Shown here: piece by piece, positions 17,661 through 39,874 of the stretch
How positions within the stretch are numbered: the stretch's first letter is position 1
Layout of the letters: the number at the start of each line of letters is the position of its first letter
Assembly (NCBI GenBank): GCA_021801265.1
Contig: JAJYYE010000002.1
Span: 1-64,000, forward strand
Direction: 5' to 3'
Source: Pseudomonadota bacterium
Lineage (GTDB): Bacteria > Pseudomonadota > Gammaproteobacteria > Halothiobacillales > Halothiobacillaceae
DNA length: 64,000 bases
Notes under the pieces: generated by a model
What the model was told of the DNA's origin: nothing
What the model saw: the letters and a program-made list of their open reading frames with translations, nothing else
Databases searched by the model: none
Program-made: the position numbers and the translations under genes

Positions 17661-18135
17661 ATATCGCTTCGTAAAGCGCATCACACAGTTCAGTAACAGC
17701 CACTTTGAATCGCTTATGAAGTTCAGTGCTCCCGACCAAGCATAGTGCTTCATCCTCCAAAATTGCCGCCATTCGTTCAGCTTGCTCGATAAACCGCAAC
17801 AAATGTATGTCCATCTTGGTTTCAGGGCCATCAGGCAGCTTCGGCATTTTGAGCAATGACCTCGGCGCCCCCATCAATGCCATGGCCGCAAGTTGGGTAA
17901 CTTTCTCACCAACTGGGCCAACCAGCTTGAATCTCACACCGTCCTTGATTCGGCTACATAGCAGCCCTTCGGTATCAATTTCGTCAATGGATTCGAGTAC
18001 TTCACCATCATTCAACGTTTTGCCGTTCAGATAGTGCTTCTTCCCCGCCTTGATGATTTTCCAGTCAACCACCTGTAATGGTTGCTTAGAGTTCACTGTC
18101 TGGGATGAATTGTTCGTCGTCGTATTGTTCATCAT
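17608..18135 (-). CDS. Transfer-region protein, C-terminus altered by IS30 joint
   Basis: I do not recognise a family. The ATG at 18135 follows CCAGGAG and overlaps the end of the coupling-protein gene by 50 bases, so it is in that operon. The product is soluble, about 175 residues, with a Thr/Asn/Ser-rich start and a conserved-looking core (WKIIKAGKKHYLNGKTL, FIEQAERMAAILEDEALCLVG). Its last 18 or so residues are read from the IS30 remnant in another frame, so the native end is probably lost. Confidence 0.6.
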   Translation of the reverse strand: MMNNTTTNNSSQTVNSKQPLQVVDWKIIKAGKKHYLNGKTLNDGEVLESIDEIDTEGLLCSRIKDGVRFKLVGPVGEKVTQLAAMALMGAPRSLLKMPKLPDGPETKMDIHLLRFIEQAERMAAILEDEALCLVGSTELHKRFKVAVTELCDALYEAIYSCKRSLPSSTIGLASA

Positions 18136-20101
18136 CAATCTCCTGGATAACTGTTTTCGATTGTGCCAACGGTAGCTGCTCAGCCTTTGCTGTTCCGAAA
18201 ATGTCACCCGTGATTTCGGCCATTTTCAGTACAAGATCGGCATGTGGGATGAGGTGACCTACCACTTCAGCTAATGCTTCTTCAGCAATGCCCTCAGATG
18301 GTTTTTCCTCTGATTCCGGTTTATTGGAATCCTTCTGTTTTGCCTCCTCACTTACTAGCTGTTGGGTTGTCTCCGTTTTTTGTGTTTTCGCCGCGTTGAG
18401 ATCAGTGTTCATCCCTGTGTTTTGCTGCGGCTCACCTAGCCTGGGCGGGACACTGCCCCATCCGGGGCGTTTGTATCCACGTTTGAGCCAGTCAGCCAAA
18501 ACGATTGAGGGGCGCATTGTTTTGATTTGGGGAAACGGCCAGTCAATAACTCCTGACCCTTTTTGGCTCATCAGTACCGCCTTGATCCCTCGTGGATAAT
18601 CCGAATCAAGGTCAGTACCGAACTGACTGGGAAGCATTACGTGCTCCCGGACGCGCTGGTAACTGTTTGAGATGTTGCTGGCGCCAGATGCCATGAAATT
18701 ACCCATATGCACGTTCTGGGTTGCCTGAAAGCGTTCCAGCTCACGTTCACCCAGTAATGAGCTTGCCCACTTCTGGTCATCCGGTTCTTTTAGGCGCGCG
18801 ATGATTTTGGTTGCCGTCTGGCCAGCCCATGTCGCACGAGTCTGCCGATCATAAGCCTTCTCAATCTGTTGCGTCCCCTGAATACCAAGAACAATCCGAC
18901 ACCCTTTGGAACGTGCCGCTTCCAGTGCCTGCGTAATGCTCGGTACGCGGCCCGCCTGTGGTGCTTCATCGACGATCAACCAGATTCGGCGCGCATTTGG
19001 TGCTGCGTCTGGAAGATCAAGAATCTGTCTAACTGTTTGCTCAATGATTGATGCAGCAAAGGCCTGAGAGACGCCAGTGGCCGTGGATTTGAAACCAATA
19101 ATGGCCACTTTATGCTGCTTTCCTGATAACCAGTCCAGCACCGACCACCCACTGGGCTGGCTGGGCTGCTGTCTGGCCGAATGCTCGGCTGTACCCAGAT
19201 GGATTACCTGGCTTAATCCCGACGCCATCTGTGCGAGGAAACTGGCCGTGGTCTTGCTGTCCTTGCCCATCAGATAGGCTTTTGCAATCGGACTTTCTCG
19301 CATGACCGTTTCCAGTAACAGCTCGTAGTTTGCAAGCATGGCGGCGGCACTTTGTGCCAGGTGCATAGCGCCCCATTCGGTGCCGTATTTGGTTTGCAGA
19401 TCGGCAATAATCGCCGTTAGAAGCCCTTGCGCGCCTCGCGCCCAGATCGGGTCTTTCTCATTGGTCGGAATCAGGGTTTCCGCAAGTGATTCAGCCTCAA
19501 TACGCGTCTGGATGTCATGGCCCATTCTCCATATCGCACTGCGAGAATCCCAAGGAGCCAACAGGGTAAAGTGATTGTCCGGCCACTTTTCCTGAAAGTC
19601 GCCCTTGAAGCTGAAAATCAGCATCAAGTCGCCGCGTGCATGAATCTGATGGAGAATCGGCCAGAGTATTGAGGTTTTGCCTGACCCAGAGCCGCCAAGT
19701 AACAGCATATGGGCTGTCTCCTGTTGCTCAGTGATGGCGATTTTCGGATGGACTTTGATGCCATCGGCTTTCTTGTCGACAAGTTGGTCAACCGATTTCA
19801 GTTCGGTCCCGCGCAGATGGATTTCCTGTTTTGCTCCACCACCACTCAACCAACCGAAGACGAGTCCGATTACTCCACCAATGGAGGCGCCGGTGATGCT
19901 GACCCAGCTCGTCAGGTGATTCCAGATAAAAACAAGATCATCCCTGTTCAGGATGTGGTGGTGAGTGGCACCGACAATAAACCACGCCACCATCAGCCCC
20001 ACGGCGGCCATTAATGTGCCCGCCATGACCGCATAGATTGGCTTTAACGCCCCGTTACCATTTTGCCAGTTGGGATTATTGAGACTGCTGCCTGTTGCCA
20101 T
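18086..20101 (-). CDS. VirD4/TrwB/TraD-like type IV coupling protein
   Basis: This 671-residue coupling protein would bring the relaxosome to a type IV secretion channel using ATP. Two N-terminal membrane segments (about residues 24-44 and 66-88) precede the ATPase domain. Walker A is GGSGSGKTS (about 134-142) and Walker B is RIWLIVDEAP (about 375). The C-terminal 120 residues are charged and low-complexity, as in TraD-type tails. An AAAGGAG site precedes the ATG. The gene follows the relaxase, the reverse of the trwB-trwC order in R388. Its 3' part holds a copy of the repeated leader motif. Confidence 0.92.
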   Translation of the reverse strand: MATGSSLNNPNWQNGNGALKPIYAVMAGTLMAAVGLMVAWFIVGATHHHILNRDDLVFIWNHLTSWVSITGASIGGVIGLVFGWLSGGGAKQEIHLRGTELKSVDQLVDKKADGIKVHPKIAITEQQETAHMLLLGGSGSGKTSILWPILHQIHARGDLMLIFSFKGDFQEKWPDNHFTLLAPWDSRSAIWRMGHDIQTRIEAESLAETLIPTNEKDPIWARGAQGLLTAIIADLQTKYGTEWGAMHLAQSAAAMLANYELLLETVMRESPIAKAYLMGKDSKTTASFLAQMASGLSQVIHLGTAEHSARQQPSQPSGWSVLDWLSGKQHKVAIIGFKSTATGVSQAFAASIIEQTVRQILDLPDAAPNARRIWLIVDEAPQAGRVPSITQALEAARSKGCRIVLGIQGTQQIEKAYDRQTRATWAGQTATKIIARLKEPDDQKWASSLLGERELERFQATQNVHMGNFMASGASNISNSYQRVREHVMLPSQFGTDLDSDYPRGIKAVLMSQKGSGVIDWPFPQIKTMRPSIVLADWLKRGYKRPGWGSVPPRLGEPQQNTGMNTDLNAAKTQKTETTQQLVSEEAKQKDSNKPESEEKPSEGIAEEALAEVVGHLIPHADLVLKMAEITGDIFGTAKAEQLPLAQSKTVIQEIDDEQYDDEQFIPDSEL
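18356..18374 (-). promoter_or_regulatory. Leader motif, copy A (inside coupling-protein gene)
   Basis: On the minus strand this reads GGAGACAACCCAACAGCTA, identical to copy E. It is in frame as coding sequence (ETTQQLV) near the 3' end of the coupling-protein gene, about 220 bases before the start of the next gene. A hairpin with arms GATTCC and GGAATC follows, as after the intergenic copies. Confidence 0.6.
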
Positions 20102-20187: not shown

Positions 20188-22986
20188 CTATTGCTGGAAC
20201 ATTGACATTTCCATCTCCATTTCAGGTTCAATGGTGATGTGGGGTTCCTGTCGATCCAGTTCCTGCTGGAGTTCTCTTCTCACCTCTTCCTTGATTTCAT
20301 CAAGGTGATGGAGCTTTTCTCCATTCTTCAGGAGCGAGAGCGCATCAGTTCCTGTCTGACGCTCCGCAGAGCGAATCCAGTTTCTTTTAAGCTGGTCGAT
20401 GTTATCCGTGATGATTTCGAGTTCGTAGCGCTGCCGTGTGCAGGTGACATAAGCGGCTTCCGCCGTCGCGGTTCTGGATGCCTCAGCGGCGCCGATGACC
20501 TTATCAATGCTCTTCCCTTGACTGCGGTAGTCCGTGATGCAGTACGCATAATCGATGTGTGCCCCGCCTGTATTGATTTCTATCTTCGTGCCGTTGCTGT
20601 CAATGATGGCCTTGCCATCCTTGACCTCCGTAACCACACCAATCTGATTATTTTTCGTTTTTGTTGACCGGTCGTTATTTGTAAATATGATTTTGTCGCC
20701 TGGGGCAATATCAATCTGGCGTGGATTGAAGACCTGTATTTTTTTGACTTGAATCTTTGAAGCGTCGATGGTCTGAAGTGAGCCGTCTTCACGTTTGACC
20801 TGAATCTGGTTCTTATTGATGTCCGCCGCGATCACTTCAAGCTGTTCGCCCTCCCTACCCATGGTTTTAATGATCTGCCCCGGTTTGTAGCTTCGGGCTA
20901 GGCGCCTTTGTGCCCGTGTCATATCGGCCTTGTCTAGCGTGGTGGCGCTGACCGAGTGGCTACTGACCTCACCCACCTTGACCAACCCTGTGCGAACCTG
21001 TTGGTTCACCCGTTTTCTAACGTCATTCGTACCACTCAATACAAGCGTGCGTGCGCGCTGTTCGGAGGTCAGTTCCAGGTATCGCGCGGCGGTGGCGGTG
21101 GCAATGGCCTGACGGCGCGCTTCCGTCTTTTCTTGTGTGGTAATTTGGCGTTCTGGCTTGTCAGGCAGGGTGACTTCAACCTTGGTGACATATTTTGAGA
21201 CCAGCTCGACCGCATTTCTGGTATTGCCCTTTGCAAACTCATGGGCAATGTCGAGCAGTTCCTGTTTTTTCTGCCTGTTAATTTCGGTAATTTCAGCGTA
21301 ATTGATGGCTTTTGAACTCATGAGTTGGGCAAATGGACTGCCCGCCTCAACGGCGCCGAGCTGTTTTGGATCGCCAACCATAACCAGCCGGTCATCCTTA
21401 CCCATATTCAGAAGGAGTGCCTCTGCATCACGGGCTGATACCATCCCGGCTTCATCCAAGATCAGCAAGCGAGGGCCAGCGGCTTCGTCCTTGAGATTAA
21501 ACTCGGCCAGTGTCATGGTGGCATCAGCTCCGGCTGATTTAAGTTCATCTGCGGCAGCGCTGGAGGGCGCAATGCCCACAACGGTCAGCCCCTGGGATTT
21601 GGCCAGTTCAGCAACAGTTTTCATGGCGGTAGTTTTACCAGCCCCGGCGGCACCGACAATGCCCGACACCTGATCGGTTGTGGTGGCGGTCAGATTGATC
21701 GCTCTTCTTTGGCCTTCACTGAATCTGAACCCTTGGGCTTTTTCAGCGTCTTCAATCAGTTGCCGCGTGTCTCCACTGCCAATCAGTGCTGGGTTCAATC
21801 CCTTCCCTTGCTGTGCCAGTAACAGGATTCGTTGCTCCCGTTTCAGAGTGTCGCGGGTGACCATCTTCCGTTTGATTCCATCCTCAATCTCAAAGACGTC
21901 TCCGACTGAGGTGGCACCCTGTATGGCTTTGTCTACCGCACTCAGCGTCGCACCTTCACTCATGTGGTTGATGAGCGCATCCAGCCGCACGGCGTCCTTG
22001 TTGATGACACTGGTACGTTCGGTCAAATGTTCGAAGGTATGGTCCAGATCAATCGCCGGCGGAGTCACTGAAACACGGGGTCCAACGGGTTGACTGAGAT
22101 CAAGCCCAGCTTCGGTTGCGCGCTGTTTCCATTCCTCATGCTGCTCCTCGGCTGATAACTGGGCTTTCCCTTGCCGGGTGGCCAGTGTGACGGCTGTTTT
22201 CAGTTCGCTACTGGCGTGGTCTCGGTCTGTCCCAAGCTCTTCCAGGGCCTTGTCAATCTGTCCTCGCCTGCGGCTGAATGTCTCAATTTGTTCATCGGTA
22301 ATCTGGGCCAGCTCGAACCCTTCCTCGGATTTACGCAGTTCATACCCCATCTCCAGGAGCCGTCTGGCCAGCTCGGCACGGTAGGCTGCTCCGGCCAATT
22401 TGATGCCGTCCTGCCCCCAGGCAAAATCAATCCCCCTCAACTTTCCGGTTTTTGGGTCAACCGTCACATTCGATACGATGCAATGACTATGGAGCAGGGC
22501 ATCCGCGATGCCGTCCACGGTGCGCGCGTCTTCATGTCGATAGGCGGCATAAATCAACTTCCCGCTTCGCACCACATTATGTCCGGCATGACCAAACCGA
22601 GCGGTAGCGAATTCCTGCTCAATCATGCCCATGGCCGCTCTAACGGCTGCATCATGGGCTTGAATAATACGGTCATCCCCACCGGCCAGTGCGAGCAAGG
22701 AAACTGATTTAGGTGCGCTGAATGACATGTCAATGCCAAGGCGACGATCAGGGTCTTCCTTCGCAAACCGTGTGCCATCAGGTAATTCCCCAGACAATAC
22801 TTTTTGAAGGTCGGCGGCATGAACGCTACCTGATAGTCCCAGATCAGCCGCCAAGGCCCCGCCCCAAGCGGATGGCGCACCTTTGGCATCGTAATAACCT
22901 GATTTTTGATCAGGGTGATTTTTCTTGTTCTCGGCATAGTCAATGATGTCTAACGGATTGCCCTTAAGATTCTTGATGCGCAACAT
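20188..22986 (-). CDS. MobF-family (TrwC/TraI-like) conjugative relaxase-helicase
   Basis: This 932-residue protein would nick oriT, stay covalently attached to the strand and unwind it. The relaxase domain fills the first 300 residues, with tyrosines at 17 and at 31-32, equivalent to the two tyrosine sets of TrwC. The metal-binding histidines are in LLHSHCIVSN (about 163-165) plus an upstream RHED. The SF1 helicase domain has Walker A GAAGAGKTT (about 443-451) and LLILDEAGM. Its ribosome site lies inside a strong hairpin (22991-23020), which suggests translational control. Confidence 0.93.
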   Translation of the reverse strand: MLRIKNLKGNPLDIIDYAENKKNHPDQKSGYYDAKGAPSAWGGALAADLGLSGSVHAADLQKVLSGELPDGTRFAKEDPDRRLGIDMSFSAPKSVSLLALAGGDDRIIQAHDAAVRAAMGMIEQEFATARFGHAGHNVVRSGKLIYAAYRHEDARTVDGIADALLHSHCIVSNVTVDPKTGKLRGIDFAWGQDGIKLAGAAYRAELARRLLEMGYELRKSEEGFELAQITDEQIETFSRRRGQIDKALEELGTDRDHASSELKTAVTLATRQGKAQLSAEEQHEEWKQRATEAGLDLSQPVGPRVSVTPPAIDLDHTFEHLTERTSVINKDAVRLDALINHMSEGATLSAVDKAIQGATSVGDVFEIEDGIKRKMVTRDTLKREQRILLLAQQGKGLNPALIGSGDTRQLIEDAEKAQGFRFSEGQRRAINLTATTTDQVSGIVGAAGAGKTTAMKTVAELAKSQGLTVVGIAPSSAAADELKSAGADATMTLAEFNLKDEAAGPRLLILDEAGMVSARDAEALLLNMGKDDRLVMVGDPKQLGAVEAGSPFAQLMSSKAINYAEITEINRQKKQELLDIAHEFAKGNTRNAVELVSKYVTKVEVTLPDKPERQITTQEKTEARRQAIATATAARYLELTSEQRARTLVLSGTNDVRKRVNQQVRTGLVKVGEVSSHSVSATTLDKADMTRAQRRLARSYKPGQIIKTMGREGEQLEVIAADINKNQIQVKREDGSLQTIDASKIQVKKIQVFNPRQIDIAPGDKIIFTNNDRSTKTKNNQIGVVTEVKDGKAIIDSNGTKIEINTGGAHIDYAYCITDYRSQGKSIDKVIGAAEASRTATAEAAYVTCTRQRYELEIITDNIDQLKRNWIRSAERQTGTDALSLLKNGEKLHHLDEIKEEVRRELQQELDRQEPHITIEPEMEMEMSMFQQ

Positions 22987-23053: not shown

Positions 23054-23662
23054 TCAATTAATTCCAGCCATGCACCAAGAAATTCCGGGGTTACAGAGAA
23101 CAGTGTCCCCATGACTAGCCCAAGAGTAATTTTCGTTCGGCCAAGTGGTGCCATACCCAGCGTTTGGGATAATCACCAGACTATTATTGCTGATGCTCGC
23201 ATAACTCCAATAAGGGTTACCCCATCCTTGATTGAATGCACCAGTCAAATCAAAGCTCGTGCCGCCTCCAGTGCTGCCCACCACATACATAAGTTGCCAA
23301 CTGGGGGCGAACGGGGGCTTTTTCATCATCAGAATTTGGCCATTTGACTGGATGCTCATCCTCTCGTAGATGGAACCCTGCCAAAACCAAATCACTGATC
23401 CAGCGGGTGGCCAGAGTGAAGCCATAGATGGGGGCGGAGCTGATTGACAAGCCAGCCCCATCCATGACGAACCATTCCACGTGGGCGCACTTGTTTGGGT
23501 CTGATTTGCTCCACAAGATGGTGGCGGGATTGCGGCAGAGGAAATCGCCGTGGAGCAGGTTGAGTCCTGTTGGCCAGGTATGGCGCAGTTGCCTGCAAGT
23601 ACGGGAACAAAAGGTAACGCCAGCCCCAAGGCCAGGGTGGCGTATGCAACGATTCTTTTCAT
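23054..23662 (-). CDS. Secreted protein of unknown function in transfer operon
   Basis: The ATG at 23662 gives a clean signal peptide (MKRIVAYATLALGLALPFVP, cleavage after VLAG). The mature part of about 180 residues is rich in Ser, Pro, Trp and Cys, with six cysteines that could form disulfides. The sequence NPGISWCMAGIN ends it. Trp/Gly-rich beta-type sequence suggests an extracellular adhesin-like or pilus-associated role, but I recognise no family. It lies between the lipoprotein gene and the relaxase, each preceded by the leader motif. Confidence 0.65.
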   Translation of the reverse strand: MKRIVAYATLALGLALPFVPVLAGNCAIPGQQDSTCSTAISSAAIPPPSCGANQTQTSAPTWNGSSWMGLACQSAPPPSMASLWPPAGSVIWFWQGSIYERMSIQSNGQILMMKKPPFAPSWQLMYVVGSTGGGTSFDLTGAFNQGWGNPYWSYASISNNSLVIIPNAGYGTTWPNENYSWASHGDTVLCNPGISWCMAGIN

Positions 23663-23703
23663 AAAACACTCTCCGACAGTCAATTGAGGACGTCCCTCAC
23701 TAC

Positions 23704-23722
23704 TAGCTGTCAGGTTGTCTCC
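23704..23722 (-). promoter_or_regulatory. Leader motif, copy D (upstream of secreted protein)
   Basis: The minus strand reads GGAGACAACCTGACAGCTA, beginning seven bases after the lipoprotein stop. A hairpin with core TGAGG/CCTCA follows, then CTGTCGGAGAGTGTTTT directly before the ATG at 23662. Hairpin and last block closely match copy G in front of the ParA-like gene. Confidence 0.7.
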
Positions 23723-25207: not shown

Positions 25208-27358
25208 TTATTTTTCGTTGGGCGTCCGTATATCCGAGCCCCCGGATACCGAGCTATCTGTAGCTGGCCGTTCACCGCCTTCCTGGAGGTTGTGACGCAC
25301 ACTCGCCCTCCCTTGTGATATTTGTGCCCGGCCAGCCTCTCCAGTGACTCCCTTGACTGTGGCCGCCGCGCCGGTAGCTGCGCTGGTGACATCATGACTG
25401 GCCTTCGTGGCACCCAAAGGTGCAACACCGAAGCCCATCCACTTCATGACGTTATCCGCTGATTCATAGATGATCTCATGCGCCTTGTGGCTCAAGGCCA
25501 CAACCAGCCCAATCATGATCAGGTTTGAGAAAATCCAGCCAGTAATGCTGGTCATGGATGTGCTGGTGATGATGCTCAGGTTGGAAATCTGAAAGCCCTT
25601 GAGCGTGAACGCTGTAATCGCGTGCATCAGAAACATGGATATCATCAGACCAAAGGTCAGCAGAATTGGGCGGAAAATCACGTTCACGAAGAGCTGCCAC
25701 CCTTGCAGGGCATAACGCCCTGCGAATCCCTCTCCATCGCTTACTGCGTGAGAAGAGGCCCACAATGGCGCCGCAATCAGACTTTCCGAAACCATGATGA
25801 GCCAGCCAAGAACGGCGAATGACCAAAAGACAAATGGGATGGCCGGTAGATAGTAGGCAAGTAACCCACCTTCACCAATCAGCACCCCTGCTACAACGTT
25901 CACTGCTGGAGTCAGAGCCATGACGGCACCCATTCCAAAGCCGCCGCCCCAGGTGTTGGTCAAAACACTCTGGCCAGTGGCATACGCTGCCGCACTGGCT
26001 GCGGTGAGTGTGCCCATGATCGACCAACCAGCCGTGATCATCCATTGACCGTATCCTGACAGGGACCGGATCGGGTCATTTTTCTCGGTCAGCAAATTCT
26101 GTAGCGCATTTGCTCCACTGCCCAGAGAGTTACCAAAAATCTTGGTAACCAACTTGCCCATCTGATCGCCATTTGTGCCATTTTTGCTACCGCCGGGTGC
26201 GTCCGCAGCCGTGGTGACCCCGCTGGCATCGGCGGTTGCACCGGGAACGGCATTGAGGAACTTTTCGAGCAAGGATTGCACTGGGAGCCATGACTCCTTG
26301 TAGTCGGGCAACTGCTGCCATGTTGGCCCAGCTGTCGTCGGCGTGACTTCACCGGCTGCCTGGTTGGCCAGGCTAGTACTTGAAATTGTCCAGTACCACT
26401 GTCCAGCCGAAACCCATCCTTCCAGTCCAGCCTGGTGAACAAACGAATCCAGTGCCTGCACCTGCGCTTGTGCCTGAGCGTTTTTCGTGTTGGCGACCCC
26501 GTTTTTCCACGTTGACCAATAAGTGTTGATTGCATTCTGGTAGTCATCTGCACTTGGGACATTTCCAGACACGATGTTGGCAGCAATGGGATCAAGGGCA
26601 TCTGCGAGTGCGACAACGGCATGACCACGCGCGGTGCACACAGCCTGAGATAAGGCCGCTTCTGCACTGGAATCAGCAGCGTTACTAACCTTTGAGCAGT
26701 CAACGACCACGCGCCCACAACTCATCGAGTGAATAAGATCACCTGACAACATTGATGAGGCCCAGTCATAACCATAGGAGTTGCCCAATAGTGTTCGTTT
26801 CTGGATTTGCACCTTGTAGGCTGTTTGCTTGGTATTCACGAAGTGCATACAGGTTTCACTTTCGAGAATCGAAGTAGCCAAATCATCAATTCCGCCCGTT
26901 GCAGCGCTTGTTCCTGAAAACACGGAGTAATTGTTGTCCGTGAAGAATTTCAACTCCGCCTGAAACAGGGTGTTCGCGCCGTTGATCGATACGCTCACCA
27001 TTCCAATGATGATCGCCTGCAAAAGCGAGAACCCACCCAGTCCGGGGAATGGCGACACAAAAACGACAGCAGCCACCGTCCTGATCGGTGCCCACATCGA
27101 GTTAAAGGATTTCCCGCCGACCTCGCCTTCGTGCGCGGTCTGAGCCACAGAAATCGACCACATGTAGAGCACGATCAATCCGGTGGCCATCAATGCAAAT
27201 CCATTGATGACTCCAGCCATAGTCTGAATCATGCCTGCCCCGGCATCAGTTGCCACACCGGAACCCGCGCCGGTTATGGTGGACACGAGCTGTGAAAAAT
27301 CACCTCCGAATAATTGGGATAGCAAAGAGGTTGATACATCAGTCGTTGAAGTACTCAT
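25208..27358 (-). CDS. DotA/TraY-like type IV secretion membrane protein
   Basis: This 716-residue polytopic inner-membrane protein has the DotA/TraY family layout. There is an N-terminal helix, a segment MWAPIRTVAAVVFVSPFPGLGG, a long periplasmic loop (about residues 150-430) with several cysteines, and a C-terminal block of five helices. It ends in SHKAHEIIYESADNVMKWMG, a signature near the end of the family. DotA/TraY belongs to I-type systems (IncI plasmids, Dot/Icm), yet no other subunit of such a system is in the window. It starts a few bases after a 54-residue membrane protein. Confidence 0.8.
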   Translation of the reverse strand: MSTSTTDVSTSLLSQLFGGDFSQLVSTITGAGSGVATDAGAGMIQTMAGVINGFALMATGLIVLYMWSISVAQTAHEGEVGGKSFNSMWAPIRTVAAVVFVSPFPGLGGFSLLQAIIIGMVSVSINGANTLFQAELKFFTDNNYSVFSGTSAATGGIDDLATSILESETCMHFVNTKQTAYKVQIQKRTLLGNSYGYDWASSMLSGDLIHSMSCGRVVVDCSKVSNAADSSAEAALSQAVCTARGHAVVALADALDPIAANIVSGNVPSADDYQNAINTYWSTWKNGVANTKNAQAQAQVQALDSFVHQAGLEGWVSAGQWYWTISSTSLANQAAGEVTPTTAGPTWQQLPDYKESWLPVQSLLEKFLNAVPGATADASGVTTAADAPGGSKNGTNGDQMGKLVTKIFGNSLGSGANALQNLLTEKNDPIRSLSGYGQWMITAGWSIMGTLTAASAAAYATGQSVLTNTWGGGFGMGAVMALTPAVNVVAGVLIGEGGLLAYYLPAIPFVFWSFAVLGWLIMVSESLIAAPLWASSHAVSDGEGFAGRYALQGWQLFVNVIFRPILLTFGLMISMFLMHAITAFTLKGFQISNLSIITSTSMTSITGWIFSNLIMIGLVVALSHKAHEIIYESADNVMKWMGFGVAPLGATKASHDVTSAATGAAATVKGVTGEAGRAQISQGRASVRHNLQEGGERPATDSSVSGGSDIRTPNEK

Positions 27359-28519: not shown

Positions 28520-29350
28520 ATGGCTCCACCACAAGATCCAGATCTCGATTTGAACGAAGAAGACATCCAAGACGTGGATGCAGCGGAAAATGATCATGAC
28601 GTTGCAATGCGCCCCGGCCCTAACGCCGATGATCCTGCCGATGTTGAAAAATACATCAGCGCAAAAGTACGGGCACTTTATGACGTGTACAGCTATCGTC
28701 ATGCGGCCGCCATCCTCGCCAACTCATATCCCGACGAACTGGCGCAAATCGAACGTGCTTTGCTCGACTTTCAAATCACCGTTAGAGAAATCGGTATGCC
28801 TGGAGGTAACGAGTCGGACATGCCCAAGAAATTCTCCCGCACATTGCGTCCCGAAGGCTGGGTTGAGACTCGCATTCAAGGAGACTTGCTTGTGAGGTCC
28901 AAAGAGTACGACGAATTGTTTCAGGATAATGGCAAAACCAAGAAGGTTAAGCTCCCTGAAAGAGAGCCACGTCTGATTGAGAACTTCATTGATGGCCACA
29001 AGATTGACTATGTGAAAGGCCGCGTCGCATTCGATCTAGAGTGGAATTCCAAAGATCAGACTTTCGACCGTGACCTGTACGCATTACGGGCCTTCCATGA
29101 ATGCGGCCTAATCAGCGCCGGGGTTCTGGTGACACGAAGTGCGAGCTTGAATCCGGTATTTGAAGTGGTCCAACAATTGAATAAACAAGGCGAAGAGATT
29201 GGTAAGACCGTGAAGGCAAAGTACGGTGCCAGCACAACTTGGATGGGTAAACTCCTGTATCGACTCAACGCAGGCCGACACGGTGGTTGCCCCGTTCTGG
29301 TGTTTGGTATTACCCCACGACTTATAACTGATTGGAATTCAAAACCATGA
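28520..29350 (+). CDS. BglII-family restriction endonuclease
   Basis: The 276-residue product matches the BglII restriction endonuclease family. The core reads VKGRVAFDLEWNSKDQTFDR, with acidic residues of a PD-(D/E)xK-type site near 171-175, followed by GLISAGVLVTRS. The N-terminal 40 residues are acidic and probably disordered. The strongest ribosome site (AGGAGG) serves an ATG at 28501 in another frame, which gives a 30-residue peptide overlapping this start. It overlaps the methyltransferase gene by four bases (ATGA). Recognition sequence unknown. Confidence 0.8.
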   Translation: MAPPQDPDLDLNEEDIQDVDAAENDHDVAMRPGPNADDPADVEKYISAKVRALYDVYSYRHAAAILANSYPDELAQIERALLDFQITVREIGMPGGNESDMPKKFSRTLRPEGWVETRIQGDLLVRSKEYDELFQDNGKTKKVKLPEREPRLIENFIDGHKIDYVKGRVAFDLEWNSKDQTFDRDLYALRAFHECGLISAGVLVTRSASLNPVFEVVQQLNKQGEEIGKTVKAKYGASTTWMGKLLYRLNAGRHGGCPVLVFGITPRLITDWNSKP

Positions 29351-30027
29351 AAAACAAGCAGGTAAACGCCGCATCAGATGCTGCGAATGACCTTCTCAAC
29401 CTCCATGGTGGTCAACGCTTTAGTACCATCCTGGCCGATCCTCCATGGCAGTTTCAGAATCGCACTGGAAAAATGGCACCAGAACACAAGCGCCTATCGC
29501 GCTATGGCACGATGAACTTAGAGGAGATCATGGCGCTGCCAGTCGAGCAGCTAGCTGATGACCCCGCTCATCTGTATTTGTGGGTTCCCAATGCGTTGCT
29601 GCCAGAAGGTTTACGCGTAATGGAAGCATGGGGTTTTCAATATAAGAGCAATATTGTATGGCACAAAATCCGTAAGGATGGCGGTCCAGATGGTCGTGGC
29701 GTGGGCTTTTACTTTCGAAATGTAACGGAGCTTGTGCTGTTTGGCATACGCGGAAAGAATGCAAGAACCCTTGCGCCTGGTCGCAGACAAGTAAATTTCC
29801 TTGCGACACAGAAGCGTGAGCATTCACGCAAGCCTGATGAGTTTTACCCCATCGTTGAAGCGTGCAGCCCTGGTCCATTTCTTGAACTATTTGCACGGGG
29901 ACCGCGTGAAGGCTGGAAAGTGTGGGGTAATCAGGCGGAAGATTACTACCCAACTTGGTCGACCTATTCGAATCACTCACAGGCGGAGCGAACGACTTTA
30001 GAGGTACCCACACTGGCAACAAAATAG
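29347..30027 (+). CDS. MT-A70-family DNA adenine methyltransferase
   Basis: This 226-residue methyltransferase has the MT-A70 signature DPPW at about residues 30-33 (STILADPPWQFQNR), then a GTMNLEEI...LP segment and HLYLWVPNALLPEGL. It should make N6-methyladenine and protect the host from the overlapping BglII-like nuclease. BglII itself is paired with an N4-cytosine methyltransferase, so this pairing differs from the prototype. The ATG lies within ATGA shared with the endonuclease stop. Confidence 0.88.
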   Translation: MKNKQVNAASDAANDLLNLHGGQRFSTILADPPWQFQNRTGKMAPEHKRLSRYGTMNLEEIMALPVEQLADDPAHLYLWVPNALLPEGLRVMEAWGFQYKSNIVWHKIRKDGGPDGRGVGFYFRNVTELVLFGIRGKNARTLAPGRRQVNFLATQKREHSRKPDEFYPIVEACSPGPFLELFARGPREGWKVWGNQAEDYYPTWSTYSNHSQAERTTLEVPTLATK

Positions 30028-30088
30028 AGAAATTTGGATTCGACCAAAATTCAACCCATGTTGGTTTCTCTATTGATGACCATATTCT

Positions 30089-31249
30089 ATGGATGAGCGA
30101 CTAATCCTCTCCTCAATGGCCCGCCATGCGACTTCACCAGAAGTTTCAGTCAGAAAATATGTAGGCGGCCTAATGGCTGATCTCGGCAATTCGATTGCCG
30201 GAAGACATAAGCTGTACCTTGATACTCGCTATTGGATATATCTGCGTGATGCGGCCATGGGCCGCGCAAAGTATCCCTGCCACCAAGAAATTCTCGACTA
30301 TGTCAGATCTCTTGTTTCAACAGGGTATGCAATTTGCCCGGTGAGTGATGTCGCATGGATGGAGCTTTTTAAGCAAACCGACCCCCAAACAAGGCTGGCA
30401 ACAGCAGATTTACTCGATGAATTAAGTCTAGGAGTGGCTATCCTGACTGAACAAGAACGAGTGATTTCCGAAATAGAGCGATTCATCATTCCTTCCGGTA
30501 TAGCCGAGCCAGTCGAAAACACAAAACAAAATGTGTGGGTCAAGACTGGATATGTCCTTGGCATAGCAATTCCAACCGTCGATAAGTGGTCCCAGGAGCT
30601 AAACCTGCGACTTCAAAAGACATCAGTGGATATGCTCTGGAACGTTACACATCGAGATCTAACTGAAGCAGCCGACGGGGTGTTGCCAATGACAAACTCA
30701 TTGGAGCAGAGCGCCGTCAAGATCACAGAGAATATGCGTCTGTATGCGCATGAGATCCGCAGCATTCAGCAAGCATTCACAGCCGAGATTTCAGGAGCCC
30801 TCAAGCTGTTCAAAGATGATATTGGGGTACTAATGCTCCGTCATTTTCGCAATACCACCGGCAACCGAGGCCCTATGCAAAATGAGCTGGTGGAAAGTGC
30901 TGCTCAAACGACTCTTACTGCGGTCATTAATGCATTCAGACTGCGCCCGAAGATAATGGCTCAACAGATACCGTCACTCTATACCTATGCAATGTGCCAT
31001 GCGGCAGTCCGAATGGACAGGACACGAAGGTTTAACGGACACGACCTCCTTGATATTCACCATGCAAGTTCCGGAATTCCCTACCATGACGCGGTGTTTA
31101 CCGAGAACCCATTACGGGTCTTGGTAACGGCGGGGAATGTAGCACTCGACAAGACATATGGGTGCACCGTGTTGGCTAAAGAGGTTGAAGTTTTGGATTA
31201 CCTTCGAAATCTTTCCGAAACACTACCCTTGGCAGAACGCCCTAAATAA
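30089..31249 (+). CDS. PIN-like domain protein next to R-M system
   Basis: This 386-residue protein has the outline of a PIN nuclease split by a long helical insert. The first strand is KLYLDTRYWIYL (Asp45), an acidic residue follows in AWMELFKQ (Glu92), and the C-terminal part has HDLLDIHHASSGIPYHDAVF (acids near 318, 321 and 334). PIN domains are metal-dependent RNases, often toxins. It lies 61 bases after the methyltransferase in the same direction and may be an added defence component. No antitoxin is visible. Confidence 0.6.
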   Translation: MDERLILSSMARHATSPEVSVRKYVGGLMADLGNSIAGRHKLYLDTRYWIYLRDAAMGRAKYPCHQEILDYVRSLVSTGYAICPVSDVAWMELFKQTDPQTRLATADLLDELSLGVAILTEQERVISEIERFIIPSGIAEPVENTKQNVWVKTGYVLGIAIPTVDKWSQELNLRLQKTSVDMLWNVTHRDLTEAADGVLPMTNSLEQSAVKITENMRLYAHEIRSIQQAFTAEISGALKLFKDDIGVLMLRHFRNTTGNRGPMQNELVESAAQTTLTAVINAFRLRPKIMAQQIPSLYTYAMCHAAVRMDRTRRFNGHDLLDIHHASSGIPYHDAVFTENPLRVLVTAGNVALDKTYGCTVLAKEVEVLDYLRNLSETLPLAERPK

Positions 31250-31271
31250 TTTTTCAAGGCAACACCTCAAA

Positions 31272-31330
31272 CCACCTTGGTGCGATGGTGTGTTCTTAGT
31301 TCCACCCTTGGGGTGGCGTCTATTGTCGTG
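31272..31330 (+). other. Candidate oriT (nic-like hairpin region)
   Basis: A hairpin CCACCC-TTG-GGGTGG (31302-31316) is followed four bases later by TATTGTC (31321-31327). In R388 the TrwC site is a hairpin followed by TATTGTCT. A smaller dyad (CACC/GGTG, about 31274-31283) lies upstream. The position, next to an stbA-like gene and its repeats, is the same as for oriT in R388. Assignment is by analogy and unproven. Confidence 0.45.
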
Positions 31331-31335
31331 TTTCG

Positions 31336-31473
31336 GCTATATCTTGCTATAGTTGGCTATATTTTAACGATATCCAGCCACTACTGGCTATTTTCTATCT
31401 ACCAACAGCAGATATTGGCTAAATATAGCTATATCATGACGATATGGAGCTATTCTTGGCTACAAGCAGCTAT
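31336..31473 (+). repeat. Nine helically phased GCTAT repeats
   Basis: GCTAT (twice GCTAA or GCTAC) occurs on the same strand at 31336, 31346, 31356, 31387, 31418, 31428, 31449, 31459 and 31469. Steps are 10, 10, 31, 31, 10, 21, 10 and 10 bases. All copies thus lie on nearly one face of the helix. They end 20 bases before the stbA-like start. The layout suits a centromere-like site and operator for that protein. Confidence 0.8.
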
Positions 31474-31492: not shown

Positions 31493-31867
31493 ATGAAGGA
31501 AATTGATGACCTGATTGCGAAGATTCTGGCATGGCCAGGGGTTTCTTTGGCCGCCCGCCTTGCTCCGTTTTACCCGGATTTGAATGCCTTACTCTTGCGC
31601 GGGTTGATCACCAAATCTGGCCTCTCAAAAAAACTGAGCTGTGACCCAACAGCGTTTGGTCGTTCCCTTAAGGTGGCCGAGGAGATGCATAGGAAAATGC
31701 TTGACGCAGGCATCGATCCAAAGGGGGATTTCTCCGTGGTGGCACCAGTGCCAGCCATCAAGCCAGCCCTTAAAAGTCCGACTGGTTCTTTTTCAGGACG
31801 AAAAGTGACACCGACCGACTCCGAAAACGGAATATCAGATTTGCCCGGCGTGAAAATGATCAAATAA
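31493..31867 (+). CDS. StbA-like small DNA-binding protein
   Basis: The 124-residue product carries a helix-turn-helix-like stretch, LITKSGLSKKLSCDPTAFGR, in its first half. Its C-terminal half is Pro/Ser/Thr-rich and likely flexible. It is the first of three genes whose order (DNA-binding protein, Walker ATPase, small membrane protein) matches stbABC of R388. There StbA binds direct repeats upstream of its own gene and stabilises the plasmid. The phased repeats just before this gene support the same role. The ATG at 31493 follows AAGGGGA. Confidence 0.6.
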   Translation: MKEIDDLIAKILAWPGVSLAARLAPFYPDLNALLLRGLITKSGLSKKLSCDPTAFGRSLKVAEEMHRKMLDAGIDPKGDFSVVAPVPAIKPALKSPTGSFSGRKVTPTDSENGISDLPGVKMIK

Positions 31868-31878
31868 ACACAAAAAAT

Positions 31879-31923
31879 GGAGACACCATGCCAGCTAGTT
31901 ATTGAGGGGCTTCCTCAATAACT
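31879..31923 (+). promoter_or_regulatory. Leader motif, copy G, with hairpin (upstream of ParA-like gene)
   Basis: The plus strand reads GGAGACACCATGCCAGCTAG (31879-31898), 16 of 19 positions like the minus-strand copies. An 11-bp stem follows (31897-31907 with 31913-31923). After it comes CTGTCGGAGAGTGTTTTT and the ATG at 31941. A five-codon mini-frame, MPASY, starts within the motif. Confidence 0.7.
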
Positions 31924-31940
31924 GTCGGAGAGTGTTTTTC

Positions 31941-32672
31941 ATGAAAAAAATCATCATCAGCCATGGGGACAAAGGCGGTGTCGGCAAATCCATGTTCGCG
32001 TCACTTGCACTCGAATACATTATTTCCCGGGGCCAGAAAGTCACCCTTGTTGAGGGGGACCCTAATATTGGAGACGTCGCCAGGCGTTATGCCGGTGTTG
32101 ATGGCATCAATGTTTTAGGTGTTAATCTCGACAAATCTGGCGTCGATGCGGAGAACGCCATTAATGCTCTGTTTTCCGAGATTGAAACGCTGGATAGCGA
32201 TTATGTGGTTATCAACTCGCCTGCAAATGCTGCCAAGACGATTGACTTCCATTCCGACCTCATTGTGCCCGTGGCGCATGATCTGGGTTTTGAAGTCCTG
32301 GTAGCGTGGATGGTGGGGCAAGGAGAGGAAAGTGCTTCCCTCTCGTCAAAATCTCATTTATGTGAGTTCGCAGACAAAAAAATTGCGGTTTTGAATTATG
32401 GTCTTTCCGGGGGCTTAGGTTCGGATCACTTCGCCTGGATGGAGCACCCAGCAAGGGATGCCTGGCTTGAAACCGGAGGGATTGAGGGATCGATCCCCCT
32501 TCTGATTTCGCGGGTATCGGGCCAAGTAAAGGACATTCGCGCTGCATCAATGCTACAGCTGGCAAAATCTCCTGATTCTCCGCTGAACCTAATCTCTCGG
32601 CAGGGTCTTTCCCGATGGCTGGATAGCTGCTTTGACGGCGCAGTCGCGCCACTCATCGGTGAGGTGGCGTAA
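31941..32672 (+). CDS. StbB/ParA-like ATPase
   Basis: This 243-residue P-loop ATPase has a deviant Walker A motif at residues 11-17 (KGGVGKS) and EGDPNIGD, then DYVVINSPANA in the Walker B position. It is of the ParA/MinD superfamily and fits StbB of R388, which affects conjugation and plasmid positioning. The ATG at 31941 is preceded by CGGAGAG within the leader. Its stop overlaps the next start by one base (TAATG). Confidence 0.75.
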   Translation: MKKIIISHGDKGGVGKSMFASLALEYIISRGQKVTLVEGDPNIGDVARRYAGVDGINVLGVNLDKSGVDAENAINALFSEIETLDSDYVVINSPANAAKTIDFHSDLIVPVAHDLGFEVLVAWMVGQGEESASLSSKSHLCEFADKKIAVLNYGLSGGLGSDHFAWMEHPARDAWLETGGIEGSIPLLISRVSGQVKDIRAASMLQLAKSPDSPLNLISRQGLSRWLDSCFDGAVAPLIGEVA

Positions 32673-33220
32673 TGGAAGGCAACATGGATGAGGTGCTGGA
32701 TGATCTGCCACCCGATGTCAGGGCTGAGGCCGCACGGATTGCGGCGAAAGCCGGACTCCGCGCGGATGATCCGGCATGGGTGTTGGCCAGACTAATTGCT
32801 GAATCTCAACATGAAGTCCTGTCACGGACTGATTCACTTCCCTCACGTATTGATGAGGCAGGGAAACGATTTGGTCAGGCGCTTGCCGGGGTTGCCAGCC
32901 CGGTGGCGGAAGCGCTTGGCAAGGTTGAAGTAGTGGTACAGAGACAGCTTTCGGATATCGACAAGAAACTGGATCAAGCGGCGTCAAAAAAAGTGGAATC
33001 GGTGACCGGGGTCTGGGCTGACGCCGCGCATAAGGAGGTGCAAAAACGACTAAAAAATGAAGGCAGACGCAGTGTTCTCATCTGGGGGGTTGCCGGAGCG
33101 GCGATGGCCGTAGCAATGATGGTGGCGGGCGGACTGGTCTGGAATGTTGTCATCAAAACAGGCTCAGTTTACGAATGCCAGACTTTCCACGAGGAGTTGT
33201 GGTGCAGGGTTAGGAATTAA
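32672..33220 (+). CDS. StbC-like membrane protein
   Basis: This 182-residue protein has a long soluble helical region (about residues 1-130, with SPVAEALGKVEVVVQRQLSD predicted to be coiled). One C-terminal membrane segment follows (VLIWGVAGAAMAVAMMVAGGLV), with a short tail holding two cysteines. Third gene in the stb-like set and translationally coupled to the ATPase. The match to StbC is by position and topology, not by clear sequence identity. Confidence 0.6.
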   Translation: MEGNMDEVLDDLPPDVRAEAARIAAKAGLRADDPAWVLARLIAESQHEVLSRTDSLPSRIDEAGKRFGQALAGVASPVAEALGKVEVVVQRQLSDIDKKLDQAASKKVESVTGVWADAAHKEVQKRLKNEGRRSVLIWGVAGAAMAVAMMVAGGLVWNVVIKTGSVYECQTFHEELWCRVRN

Positions 33221-33290: not shown

Positions 33291-34358
33291 TCAAGCTGCC
33301 GTTCCCGCGGCGGCTTTTTTATGGTTTTCAAACACCTGAATCAGAGGTTCTTCCGGGCTGAGCTCTTTCAGACGCGACAGTACTTCGGGCGGAACCAATT
33401 CCGGGTTCCGGGGGAACTTCCGCATATTGCTATTGATCTCGCTCTTCAACACGTTTATCTCGTGTTCATGGTTTTCAGGCAGCGCAGCATCCGAATCCCC
33501 CGCTCCCGCGAGTCGATTTTTAGCCTGCCCGGCTGTCTCACCGGGGCGAGCGGCATCGGATAAACTTACTGGGTCCCATCCACCTCTTTTTAATATCCCT
33601 CTTACGGCTCCAATCACGTCATGGCCGTCCTGGATTAAATACATCGTGATCGCGTCAACGTCCCGCTCAGTAAGGGCCTCTCCACCTTTCAAAGTAAGCT
33701 TCGAGAGTTGGAAACGGAAGTAGTTCGTGGATGATCTTTTAACCCGCCTCAGCAACTCTGGCCACTTCTCGTGATTTTGGAATAATAATTCAACACACTC
33801 ACCCGCCGGAGGCGGCGGCTTCGCTCCCTGAGCCTCTGGCTCATGGGTATCCCGCGCCGGAGGCGCGGGTGAGTAGTTGTTAACTACTATTGGTGAATAT
33901 TCCTGGTAGCCCCCCCCTTTCCCATCCATGCGACTCCCATCCATGCGTTTGGGGGGGATGGAGCGTAGATTCTGCGAATTTTCCCCACCCCCCCGATTTG
34001 GGGGGATGGAAGATAAAAGGGTATCAAGAAGTGGTGCGTCGGTGAATTCGTACTCCCAAATGATCGCGTTTTCTATGATTTTGTTGGCTTTTCGCGAGAA
34101 AACTGCTCCACGCTTTTTGGTAACAGACAGGTAACCTACTGCCACCATCTCGTCCCGCATTCGCGGCCATTTTTTATCAGAGATCCCTAGCGTGTGACAC
34201 ATATGCCCAATTCGAAAATTCCAGTCATTTGGACGACTTAGCGCCCAACCAAGAACGGTTCTAGTGTCCAACGAAAGTCTCAAATCTAAGAATACGGCAG
34301 TGGGAAATATAGAAATCTCCGGTAAACTTAACCTTACTTTTGCGTTACCGGTATTCAT
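33291..34358 (-). CDS. HTH replication-initiator-like protein
   Basis: The ATG at 34358 gives a 355-residue protein. Its first 110 residues form a winged-helix domain (LDTRTVLGWALSRPNDWNFR, then GHMCHTLGISDKKWPRMRDE). This is like the N-terminal domains of phage and plasmid replication proteins that read an HTH plus wing. The middle is Gly/Pro-rich, and the end is helical. It may initiate replication of the excised element. It overlaps the upstream gene by four bases (ATGA). Confidence 0.6.
   Translation of the reverse strand: MNTGNAKVRLSLPEISIFPTAVFLDLRLSLDTRTVLGWALSRPNDWNFRIGHMCHTLGISDKKWPRMRDEMVAVGYLSVTKKRGAVFSRKANKIIENAIIWEYEFTDAPLLDTLLSSIPPNRGGGENSQNLRSIPPKRMDGSRMDGKGGGYQEYSPIVVNNYSPAPPARDTHEPEAQGAKPPPPAGECVELLFQNHEKWPELLRRVKRSSTNYFRFQLSKLTLKGGEALTERDVDAITMYLIQDGHDVIGAVRGILKRGGWDPVSLSDAARPGETAGQAKNRLAGAGDSDAALPENHEHEINVLKSEINSNMRKFPRNPELVPPEVLSRLKELSPEEPLIQVFENHKKAAAGTAA
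33293..33320 (+). terminator. Rho-independent terminator of the stb-like operon
   Basis: A 9-bp stem with one G-U pair (33293-33301 with 33308-33316) is followed by a run of six Ts. It overlaps the last codons of the convergent replication-initiator-like gene. Confidence 0.8.
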
Positions 34359-34903
34359 TCCGCCACCCCCTGGTCCAGGTCCAGGTCGAGCTGCACCAGC
34401 GCCGAACAATCAGTCCCTGACCAGCCCTCAGGTGTCTGGGGCCTTTTTACCCACTTCCTAACCTTCGCAAGGATTCGGTAAAAAACAGCCCGAGGAATAC
34501 CGACCGCCGGGGCCGACGACGTGATCGTATCGGCGCCGCCGACCCTCCGCATTTCTGACAACACTCTGATGATTTTTTCGCGATGCCTAATAGGACACAT
34601 CATCATGATTTCGTATAGTTTTTCTTCCGGGTCTTCCGGCTCCTCATCTGGATTCGGGGCAGGAAGATCAAAAAAATCATCTTCATCAGAGGAAAAATGA
34701 ACCTCCCCTGCTGAATGATCGTTGCGAATATTTTGATGGTGGAATCGCCTGGCCAGCCGGACCTTGCGCCCCGAATCAGTTTGTAGCTGGCATTCAAACG
34801 CCTGCCCTTGATCAATTTGTAGTCCGTGACCCTCGCATTCCCTTTTAAATTCGAGGACTTGAGCCCAGATTTCGATCTGGGTGTGGTCGATGGGGCGCGT
34901 CAT
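34355..34903 (-). CDS. Hypothetical protein in replication-like operon
   Basis: The 182-residue product is not recognised. It has an acidic middle (HFSSDEDDFFDLPAPNPDEE) and a C-terminal helical domain (EKIIRVLSEMRRVGGADTIT, then VPRAVFYRILAKVRKWV-like sequence) that may be a helix-turn-helix. It overlaps genes on both sides by four bases, so the three-gene operon is translationally coupled. Confidence 0.6.
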   Translation of the reverse strand: MTRPIDHTQIEIWAQVLEFKRECEGHGLQIDQGQAFECQLQTDSGRKVRLARRFHHQNIRNDHSAGEVHFSSDEDDFFDLPAPNPDEEPEDPEEKLYEIMMMCPIRHREKIIRVLSEMRRVGGADTITSSAPAVGIPRAVFYRILAKVRKWVKRPQTPEGWSGTDCSALVQLDLDLDQGVAE

Positions 34904-36062: not shown

Positions 36063-37049
36063 TTAATCCAACTTCGCCGCCAAATCCTCTGCCCTGAGGT
36101 GCGTGTAACGAGCCAACATCGCAGGCGATTTATGGCCTGTGATCGAAGCAACTTCCATCAATTGCAATCCCTTTTCAAAGAATCGACTTGTTGCTTCGTG
36201 GCGAAGGTCATGAAATGTCAGCCCTTCAATACCTGCCCTAGGGCATACGCGTGCCCATGCAGACCGGAATCCCCCGGACGATTGATAAGACCACACCCTT
36301 CCTGAAATTCGCCTTGGCAATGCTTTAAGAACATCAACAGCCCTCATCGACAGGGGTACAGTTCTAGCCGCTCCGTTTTTCGTGATCGGTAAATGACAGA
36401 CCCTCATATCAAGGTCTATGTGCTTCCATTCCATGCCTAGAATTTCCCCTTGCCGCATCCCCGTTTCAATGGCTATACGTACAATCGCTGCCATTTCATG
36501 ACTGGTAGATGCAGCAGATTCCATCAGGCGCGCCTCCTCATCACCATCAAGACGACGGTCGCGCCCCCGTGGCAAACGCGGCTTGCGGACAAACTCGGTG
36601 GGATTGGTAAGGCTTTCCATTCCCCATTCACGCCTGGCAACAGTGAATAAGTTGGAGATAACGGCGAGATATAATCGGATCGTATTTGCCGCAAGTCCCC
36701 TACCCTGCATATCCGCCACCACATCAGCGAGATCAGAGCCACGAATTGAAGCCAGCGACCGAATTGACAGAGGATGCTCAATCCATAGCTTTATGCGCCC
36801 CTCTTCCGCCGCTGTATTACGTTTTGTAGGTGTGATTTCTCGGCGGTATCGCTCCAGCGCTGTACCTAGGGTGGTGCTTTCTGATTCTGTGCGGCTAACA
36901 AAAACGCCGCGAACCATCTCCGACTCTACTACACTCGCCCACGCAGCGGCTTCCTTGCGCGTGGCAAAGGTTTTAGTCTGGGACAAGAAACCCTTTTTAC
37001 GTATTTGAGCCTCCCATTGAGAAGCTCCACGTTTTCGAATCGTCGCCAT
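36063..37049 (-). CDS. int: Tyrosine recombinase (integrase)
   Basis: This 328-residue phage-type integrase carries the catalytic set: Arg in ETGMRQGEI (about residue 196), HDLRHE (about 281), His in TGHKS and Tyr in ARYTHL (about 313). The N-terminal part is an arm-binding domain (MATIRKRGASQWEAQIRKKG) and a SAM-like core-binding domain. I chose the ATG at 37049 because GGAGG lies just upstream. It reads away from the tRNA-Cys fragment about 90 bases upstream, the usual arrangement for a tRNA-targeting island integrase. Confidence 0.92.
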   Translation of the reverse strand: MATIRKRGASQWEAQIRKKGFLSQTKTFATRKEAAAWASVVESEMVRGVFVSRTESESTTLGTALERYRREITPTKRNTAAEEGRIKLWIEHPLSIRSLASIRGSDLADVVADMQGRGLAANTIRLYLAVISNLFTVARREWGMESLTNPTEFVRKPRLPRGRDRRLDGDEEARLMESAASTSHEMAAIVRIAIETGMRQGEILGMEWKHIDLDMRVCHLPITKNGAARTVPLSMRAVDVLKALPRRISGRVWSYQSSGGFRSAWARVCPRAGIEGLTFHDLRHEATSRFFEKGLQLMEVASITGHKSPAMLARYTHLRAEDLAAKLD

Positions 37050-37140
37050 ATGCACCTCCAATTTCACACCAACTGTGGCAAAATTGTGGCACAAAATCAT
37101 AAATCTCGATAAAACGGCTACATTTCAATGCGTGATTTTA

Positions 37141-38588: not shown

Positions 38589-39710
38589 TCATTCCAGATT
38601 CAACTCATAGCTGGTACTTCGTCCGCCCGCCTCGGACTTAACGAGAACACCCATATCAATGAGCTCATTGATATCACGCAGGGCAGTGCCAGAAGAACAC
38701 TTGGCGATTTTGCCCCACTTCTGGGCCGTCAAATTACCCTCGAAGCCATCCAGCAGCTTGTTCAGCATCTTGGTCTGGCGCTCATTCATGGAGATTCCAC
38801 CAAGACGCTGCCAGAAGCGCGCCTTAACCAAGACTGCATCCAGGGTACGGCCCGCATCCTTGATGGCGCGTTCCAAGGTACCAAGGAACCAACCCAACCA
38901 GATGGTAACGTCCATTCCTGATTTCTGGGTGGCTTCCAGAATATCGTAGTAGTCTCGCCAATCTCGCTGTATCTGTGCCGACAGGCTATAGAACCGCTGA
39001 GGGCTGCCATCGGCACGAGCAAGCAGAAGATCGCCAACGGCCCGAGCGATTCGCCCATTACCATCATCGAATGGATGCAGGGTCACAAACCACAGATGGC
39101 CTAATCCCGCCTTGATCAACGGCGAATGATCCCCGTTGTGATTCAGCCATTCGAGAAAGTGAGCCATTTCGTGATCAAGCCGATCAGCGGGCGGCGCCTG
39201 ATAGTGGACACGCTGGCGGCCAAACGGCCCGGAAACCACTTGCATCGGACCATCTTCTTCATCGTCACGCCACGGACCAACCTTGATTTTACTCATGCCG
39301 GAGTACCCTGTCGGGAATAGGGACGCATGCCAGCCAAACAGTCGCTCAGGCGTCACCTCGGACTCGGCATTGCCAGTAGCATCCAGCACCATATCCACGA
39401 CCCCATCGACGTGTCGATCCACAGGCGCTAAGGCCCCAATGTCTACACCGAGCCGGCGGGCAATTGAGGAACGCACCGACTGGACATTCAAGGAATCCCC
39501 CTCGATCTCGCTGGACTTGACCACATCATCGGTTAGTGCGGTCAGGGAGGCCTCGCTGCGCAGTTGTGAGCCGACATCAGCCAAACGGCCAATCAACAAC
39601 CCTTGAGCCATGCTGACACGGCCTAAAAGCCCAACGAGAGCACCGAGGTCATACTGCCAGCATGGCCAGTTCTCCAGCTCCCAGATGTAGGTGTATTCTC
39701 TTCGCTTCAT
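38589..39710 (-). CDS. Fic-domain protein with N-terminal inhibitory motif
   Basis: This 373-residue protein should transfer AMP or a related group to a target protein. The active-site loop is HPFDDGNGRIAR (about residues 210-221), complete with the catalytic His. The inhibitory helix motif SSEIEGD (about 65-71) lies in the N-terminal part, making it a self-inhibited class II Fic protein. A C-terminal winged helix (TAQKWGKIAKCSSGTALRDI) follows. The ATG at 39710 was chosen; the gene stands alone between IS110 remnants. Confidence 0.9.
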   Translation of the reverse strand: MKRREYTYIWELENWPCWQYDLGALVGLLGRVSMAQGLLIGRLADVGSQLRSEASLTALTDDVVKSSEIEGDSLNVQSVRSSIARRLGVDIGALAPVDRHVDGVVDMVLDATGNAESEVTPERLFGWHASLFPTGYSGMSKIKVGPWRDDEEDGPMQVVSGPFGRQRVHYQAPPADRLDHEMAHFLEWLNHNGDHSPLIKAGLGHLWFVTLHPFDDGNGRIARAVGDLLLARADGSPQRFYSLSAQIQRDWRDYYDILEATQKSGMDVTIWLGWFLGTLERAIKDAGRTLDAVLVKARFWQRLGGISMNERQTKMLNKLLDGFEGNLTAQKWGKIAKCSSGTALRDINELIDMGVLVKSEAGGRSTSYELNLE

Positions 39711-39874
39711 GTGGAAATTGTACGCCCTATTCGCTGCAGTCGGCAAATATTCTCATCAAATAATGAGGAGAAAATAATGGCATTCCCTCAAAGGGCATAA
39801 AAAGCGGCTCAATGGCCGGACTTTTATGGATACTCCCCCTTTTTTAGCGGTTGGCTACAGTAATTTTTGGGGGT

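What the first reader, a model, noticed from the sequence alone, without database searches (positions are those of the whole stretch)
31336..31473. Nine GCTAT repeats phased to the DNA helix in front of an stbA-like gene
Starts at 31336, 31346, 31356, 31387, 31418, 31428, 31449, 31459, 31469 give steps of 10, 10, 31, 31, 10, 21, 10 and 10. Gaps are near whole multiples of one helical turn; two of the skipped positions (near 31367 and 31439) hold ACGAT, like decayed repeats. R388 StbA binds arrays of direct repeats next to its own gene and oriT. A different repeat sequence with single-face phasing suggests a new StbA-type centromere or filament site.
Basis: partly seen in the sequence, partly recalled or inferred. 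Interest (0 to 1): 0.7.

Follow-up and report, generated by a model that had tools for sequence, protein, structure and literature searches.

The report
Helix-phased repeat array beside transfer origin
Between the probable DNA-transfer origin of a chromosome-borne mobile element and its stbABC-like genes lies a row of short repeats spaced one helix turn apart, very probably the binding platform of the first gene's product, as in plasmid R388; a sister element has a row of different repeats in the same place, as if platform and reader changed together.

Summary
The array is real. Nine GCTA sit at the stated starts (seven are exact GCTAT; 31418 is GCTAA, 31459 is GCTAC). Phase coherence is 0.99 at 10.25 bp; none of 2000 dinucleotide shuffles reaches it, and it is the best such signal in 64 kb. 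The ten strongest autocorrelation lags are all multiples of about 10.25 bp.

It lies 45 bp past a candidate MOBF nic site (31291/31292) and directly before a stbABC-like operon. Helix-phased arrays before stbA are already known (R388 stbDRs: 9 bp + 2 = 11 bp), and I found them in seven of nine R388-type stb loci but in none of five MOBP mobC-type loci. So this is a variant of a known kind, with a new unit and a slightly shorter period.

The more interesting point: a same-genus element keeps the oriT (88% DNA), relaxase (79%) and StbC end (81% over 139 aa), but has twelve GTCAA-type slots at exactly 11 bp, with StbA 40% and StbB 31% identical. Array and cognate genes look like a replaceable specificity module.

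Caveats: sequence homology of this StbA to R388 StbA was not detectable; binding is untested; both elements are chromosomal, so "plasmid centromere" is not established.

The parts
31336..31473 (+). Phased direct-repeat array: 14 slots at 10-11 bp (mean 10.23), nine with GCTA (seven GCTAT), two with ACGAT
31260..31327 (+). Candidate MOBF oriT; nic predicted at 31291/31292 in GGTGCGATGGTGT/G; 88% identical in the same-genus element G013
31302..31316 (+). Short perfect hairpin CCACCC-TTG-GGGTGG, conserved in G013 with one extra base, between nic and array
31493..31867 (+). stbA-like gene, 124 aa, putative reader of the array; no family match; 40% identical to the G013 homologue
31941..32672 (+). 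stbB-like ParA-type ATPase (KGGVGKS), weakly TraL-like (NF010461, E 3e-7, below cut-off)
32672..33220 (+). stbC-like protein, hydrophobic segment near the C end, weakly like DUF6753; last 139 aa 81% identical in G013
20188..22986 (-). TrwC-type MOBF relaxase, 79% identical to the G013 relaxase, 30% to R388 TrwC
18086..20101 (-). TrwB/TraD-type coupling protein
36063..37100 (-). Tyrosine integrase, consistent with an integrated element

Best explanation
The array is the binding platform of the stbA-like protein of an integrated, conjugation-related element. Successive protein units dock about every 10.25 bp, roughly on one side of the helix, between oriT and the stb genes. As for R388 StbA, the complex would (i) repress its own operon, (ii) mark the leading side of oriT and restrain or license transfer together with the ParA-like StbB, and (iii) help keep the excised circular form. 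Unit sequence and StbA/StbB differ together between related elements while oriT, relaxase and the StbC C-terminus stay, so array + stbA + stbB behave as a replaceable specificity module. Shown: array, phasing, gene order, nic-like motif, conserved flanks, divergent middle. Inferred: binding, regulation, maintenance role, joint replacement.
For: Array beyond chance. Position between a nic-like motif and stbABC-like genes, as in R388. Phased arrays before stbA in seven of nine R388-type loci and none of five MOBP mobC-type loci. Sister element with twelve GTCAA-type slots at 11 bp at the same place, same oriT and relaxase, divergent StbA/StbB. R388 StbA binds its repeats and represses its own promoter (PMC3098194; PMC3937220).
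Against: No detectable sequence homology between this StbA and R388 StbA. AlphaFold2 model unusable (pLDDT 47). Only one close relative found, so joint change rests on one pair. pXcB and pACMV3 have the nic motif and stb-like genes but no significant array. Element is chromosomal, so a partition role is uncertain.
Confidence: 0.72

Rival explanations
1. The array is only an operator: the stbA-like protein binds it to autoregulate the operon, with no role in oriT architecture or maintenance.
For: It lies directly before the operon; R388 StbA represses its own promoter 50-fold.
Against: Fourteen slots are far more than a simple operator needs; R388 repeats act in cis in stability and transfer.
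Confidence: 0.15
2. The phased steps are mainly a DNA-shape signal (flexible TA and GC steps every turn) that lets a host or relaxosome protein wrap the oriT region; StbA is not the reader.
For: GC steps (n*R^2 9.4) and TA steps (4.6) are phased at 10.2 bp.
Against: G013 has no TA step at all in its array and a different period (11.0), yet keeps a sequence-specific unit; units track the StbA lineage.
Confidence: 0.08
3. Chance or low-complexity artefact.
For: Units are short and AT-rich; the motif was picked after looking.
Against: Tests over all 4-mers, periods and places, and an independent phased array at the homologous place in G013.
Confidence: 0.01

Closest known systems
R388 stbDRs / StbABC (IncW, MOBF11)
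   Same: Direct repeats one helix turn apart between oriT and stbA; MOBF relaxase; three-gene operon with ParA-like StbB on the leading side
   Different: Unit TTGCATCAT at 11 bp in two sets of five against GCTA at 10.25 bp in 14 slots; StbA not alignable beyond noise; StbB has the KGGVGK type Walker motif rather than SGxxGK; element integrated
RP4 TraKLM and pTF-FC2-type MobCDE operons
   Same: StbB is closest to TraL/MobD; StbC is weakly like DUF6753, the gene after mobD
   Different: MOBP relaxases; no phased array in the five mobC-type loci tested; RP4 itself was not tested
G013 (same-genus chromosomal element)
   Same: oriT 88%, relaxase 79%, StbC end 81%, array in the same place
   Different: Unit GTCAA(C) at exactly 11 bp; StbA 40%, StbB 31%

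Membership tests
R388-type stbDR array | direct repeats about one helix turn apart directly before stbA | tested here: met
R388-type stbDR array | R388 unit (TTGCATCAT) and exact 11-bp period | tested here: not met
   GCTA at 10.23 bp; R388 unit
R388-type stbDR array | bound by the product of the next gene | not testable with these tools
   needs EMSA or footprint
R388-type stbDR array | array stabilises a replicon in cis | not testable with these tools
   needs plasmid-loss assays
StbA protein family | significant sequence similarity to R388 StbA | tested here: inconclusive
   hhalign probability 3.9%; family HMM does not list the window protein above background; reverse profile puts R388 StbA first with E 0.005 among 13 sequences
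StbA protein family | N-terminal HTH fold as in 7PC1 | tested here: inconclusive
   single-sequence model pLDDT 47, helical N-half only
StbABC/TraKLM/MobCDE operon | DNA-binding-sized first gene, ParA-like ATPase, third gene, on the 3' side of nic | tested here: met
   nic is predicted, not mapped
MOBF transfer system | TrwC-type relaxase and MOBF-like nic motif | tested here: met

The most novel reading that the evidence does not exclude
In MOBF stb systems the array and its StbA/StbB form a specificity cassette that is exchanged as a block in a fixed oriT/StbC frame, giving types that do not cross-react (an oriT-linked incompatibility or transfer code), that also act in chromosome-integrated elements, and that tolerate different helical pitches (10.25 against 11 bp).
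Probability: 0.4. Interest if true: 0.6.

Novelty: new variant of a known kind. Interest (0 to 1): 0.45.

Why it matters
How StbA balances transfer against vertical stability is still open, and its DNA code is documented mainly for R388. A natural pair of elements with nearly the same oriT and relaxase but different arrays and StbA lets specificity, spacing tolerance and cross-talk be tested directly. It also suggests a DNA signature (TGCG(N)NNKGTST followed within about 200 bp by a 10-11 bp phased array and an stbB gene) for finding oriT in unannotated MOBF elements.

Tried and rejected
Searches for further close relatives of StbA, StbB or StbC: genome contigs and viral contigs, plasmids, 369 class genomes; only G013 was convincing. 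L006, L007, L008 and L018 sit in unrelated or uninformative contexts and were treated as chance matches. A pattern search for the nic box in 398 phylum genomes gave scattered hits with 2-3 mismatches; the reversed-pattern control also hit about nine genomes, so I treated them as mostly chance and did not inspect each. G020 has a mobC/mobD-type operon without an array. pACMV3 has the nic-like motif and an stb-like operon but no significant array. G021's contig with a 34% identical relaxase showed no array above noise. Rfam: nothing. No fold search was run because the model was poor.

Full report
OBSERVATION. The sequence at 31336-31473 holds GCTA at all nine stated starts; seven are GCTAT, 31418 is GCTAA and 31459 is GCTAC. 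The ladder has 14 slots with steps of 10 or 11 bp, mean 10.23. The skipped slots hold ACGAT (31367, 31439), GCCAC (31377) and two poor matches (31397, 31408), so it can also be read as two six-slot sets separated by two weak slots, all in phase, reminiscent of the two sets of five repeats in R388. A scan statistic over all 4-mers and periods of 10.0-11.2 bp gave 8.80; 2000 dinucleotide shuffles of the same 151 bp peaked at 5.86 and no other independent place in the window exceeded 5.4. Autocorrelation without any motif gives 31, 72, 41, 82, 92, 61, 103, 113, 123 and 51 as the ten best lags, all multiples of about 10.25. No further phased GCTAT pair exists in the 166.7-kb contig.

SURROUNDINGS. 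The window is the first 64 kb of a 166.7-kb contig of a 2.66-Mb genome. The element carries a TrwC-type MOBF relaxase, a TrwB-type coupling protein and a DotA/TraY-like protein on the minus strand and a tyrosine integrase; beyond about 46 kb the genes look chromosomal (moeA, a formate-dehydrogenase-like set, a glutamyl/glutaminyl tRNA synthetase). The array precedes three genes on the plus strand: a 124-aa protein without any family match, a ParA-like ATPase closest to TraL/MobD, and a protein weakly like DUF6753.

ORIGIN OF TRANSFER. 45 bp before the array stands GGTGCGATGGTGT/G. The motif TGCG(N)NN[TG]GT[CG]T occurs 194-309 bp before stbA in the window, G013, pACMV3 and eight of nine R388-type stb loci (R388: TGCGTATTGTCT followed by ATAG; pPA1045-2 lacks it), and in none of five MOBP mobC-type loci; base-shuffled DNA has it in 1% of 405-bp stretches. 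I wrote the motif after seeing these sequences, so the comparison is descriptive. I read 31260-31327 as oriT with nic at 31291/31292; this is a prediction, and the R388 nick position is from general knowledge. [quoted passage not shown]

COMPARISON. DNA similarity covers oriT (88% over 31260-31327) and is then absent until 32849 inside stbC, apart from a 76-bp leader that in G013 lies elsewhere. Protein identity: relaxase 79%, StbA 40%, StbB 31%, StbC 81% over its last 139 aa. The middle has diverged or been replaced as a block while both flanks are conserved; one pair cannot tell replacement from fast co-divergence.

SURVEY. Testing 400 bp before stbA against 100 shuffles, phased arrays at about 10.5-11 bp were significant in R388, Oligella, pXAC33, X. 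citri pv. punicae, P. psychrotolerans, pPA1045-2 and Moraxella; pXff45 was borderline, pXcB negative, and five MOBP mobC-type loci (one of them in G020, same genus) were negative. P values are bounded at about 0.01 by the number of shuffles and are uncorrected, and some loci are close relatives (R388 and Oligella; pXAC33 and punicae). Units differ: ATGCA/TGCA, ATAGC (reverse complement of GCTAT) and GCAAA. Phasing is the shared feature; the unit varies.

MECHANISM. R388 StbA binds its repeats in vitro, acts through them in stability and in restraining transfer, and represses its own promoter 50-fold; StbB is needed for conjugation (PMC3098194; PMC3937220). By analogy the GCTA array most likely loads the 31493-31867 product as a row beside oriT. 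At 10.23 bp per slot the row drifts about -9 degrees per slot against 10.5-bp DNA, at 11 bp about +17, so the two arrays would set proteins on different superhelical paths. What the system does in an integrated element (maintenance of the excised circle, transfer control, or only autoregulation) is not shown.

MEMBERSHIP. As an array it meets the positional and phasing features of stbDRs, not the R388 unit or exact period. The protein cannot be filed as StbA by sequence: HMM and profile comparisons are at noise; the only hint is that R388 StbA is the top hit of the reverse profile (E 0.005 among 13 sequences). The AlphaFold2 model from a single sequence has pLDDT 47; its helical N-half and unstructured C-half are compatible but prove nothing. 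R388 StbA has a solved 72-residue structure (7PC1) for a later test.

Noticed in passing
window 31879-31954; 23651-23722 (-); partial near 27960; G013:C1:1006600-1006675: A nearly identical leader with a hairpin (TTATTGAGG-GGCTT-CCTCAATAA) and SD-like GGAGACA...(C/A)TGACAGCTAGT precedes stbB and at least one other gene of the element, and a gene in G013 (97% over 76 bp). It may encode a tiny leader peptide or a shared translation control.
   Followed up: partly
window 28520-31249: BglII-family endonuclease (Pfam 1.4e-50), MT-A70-type methylase and an unmatched 386-aa protein lie between the relaxase side and oriT; a likely restriction-modification insertion.
   Followed up: partly
window 25208-27358 (-): A DotA/TraY-like protein (type I / IVB system) in a MOBF element with no other recognised large secretion gene in the stretch read; possibly a mobilisable or reduced element.
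   Followed up: no
L028 (pPA1045-2), about 20-110 bp before the stbA-like gene: Phased ATAGC repeats, the reverse complement of GCTAT, in a MobC-neighbouring stbA-like locus without the MOBF nic motif.
   Followed up: no
window 38589-39746 (-): Fic-domain protein matching PADLOC SoFic.
   Followed up: no
window 33291-34409 (-): Protein convergent with stbC, weakly like a phage replication initiation protein (PHROG 4707, E 4e-4); DNA similarity continues into it in G013.
   Followed up: no
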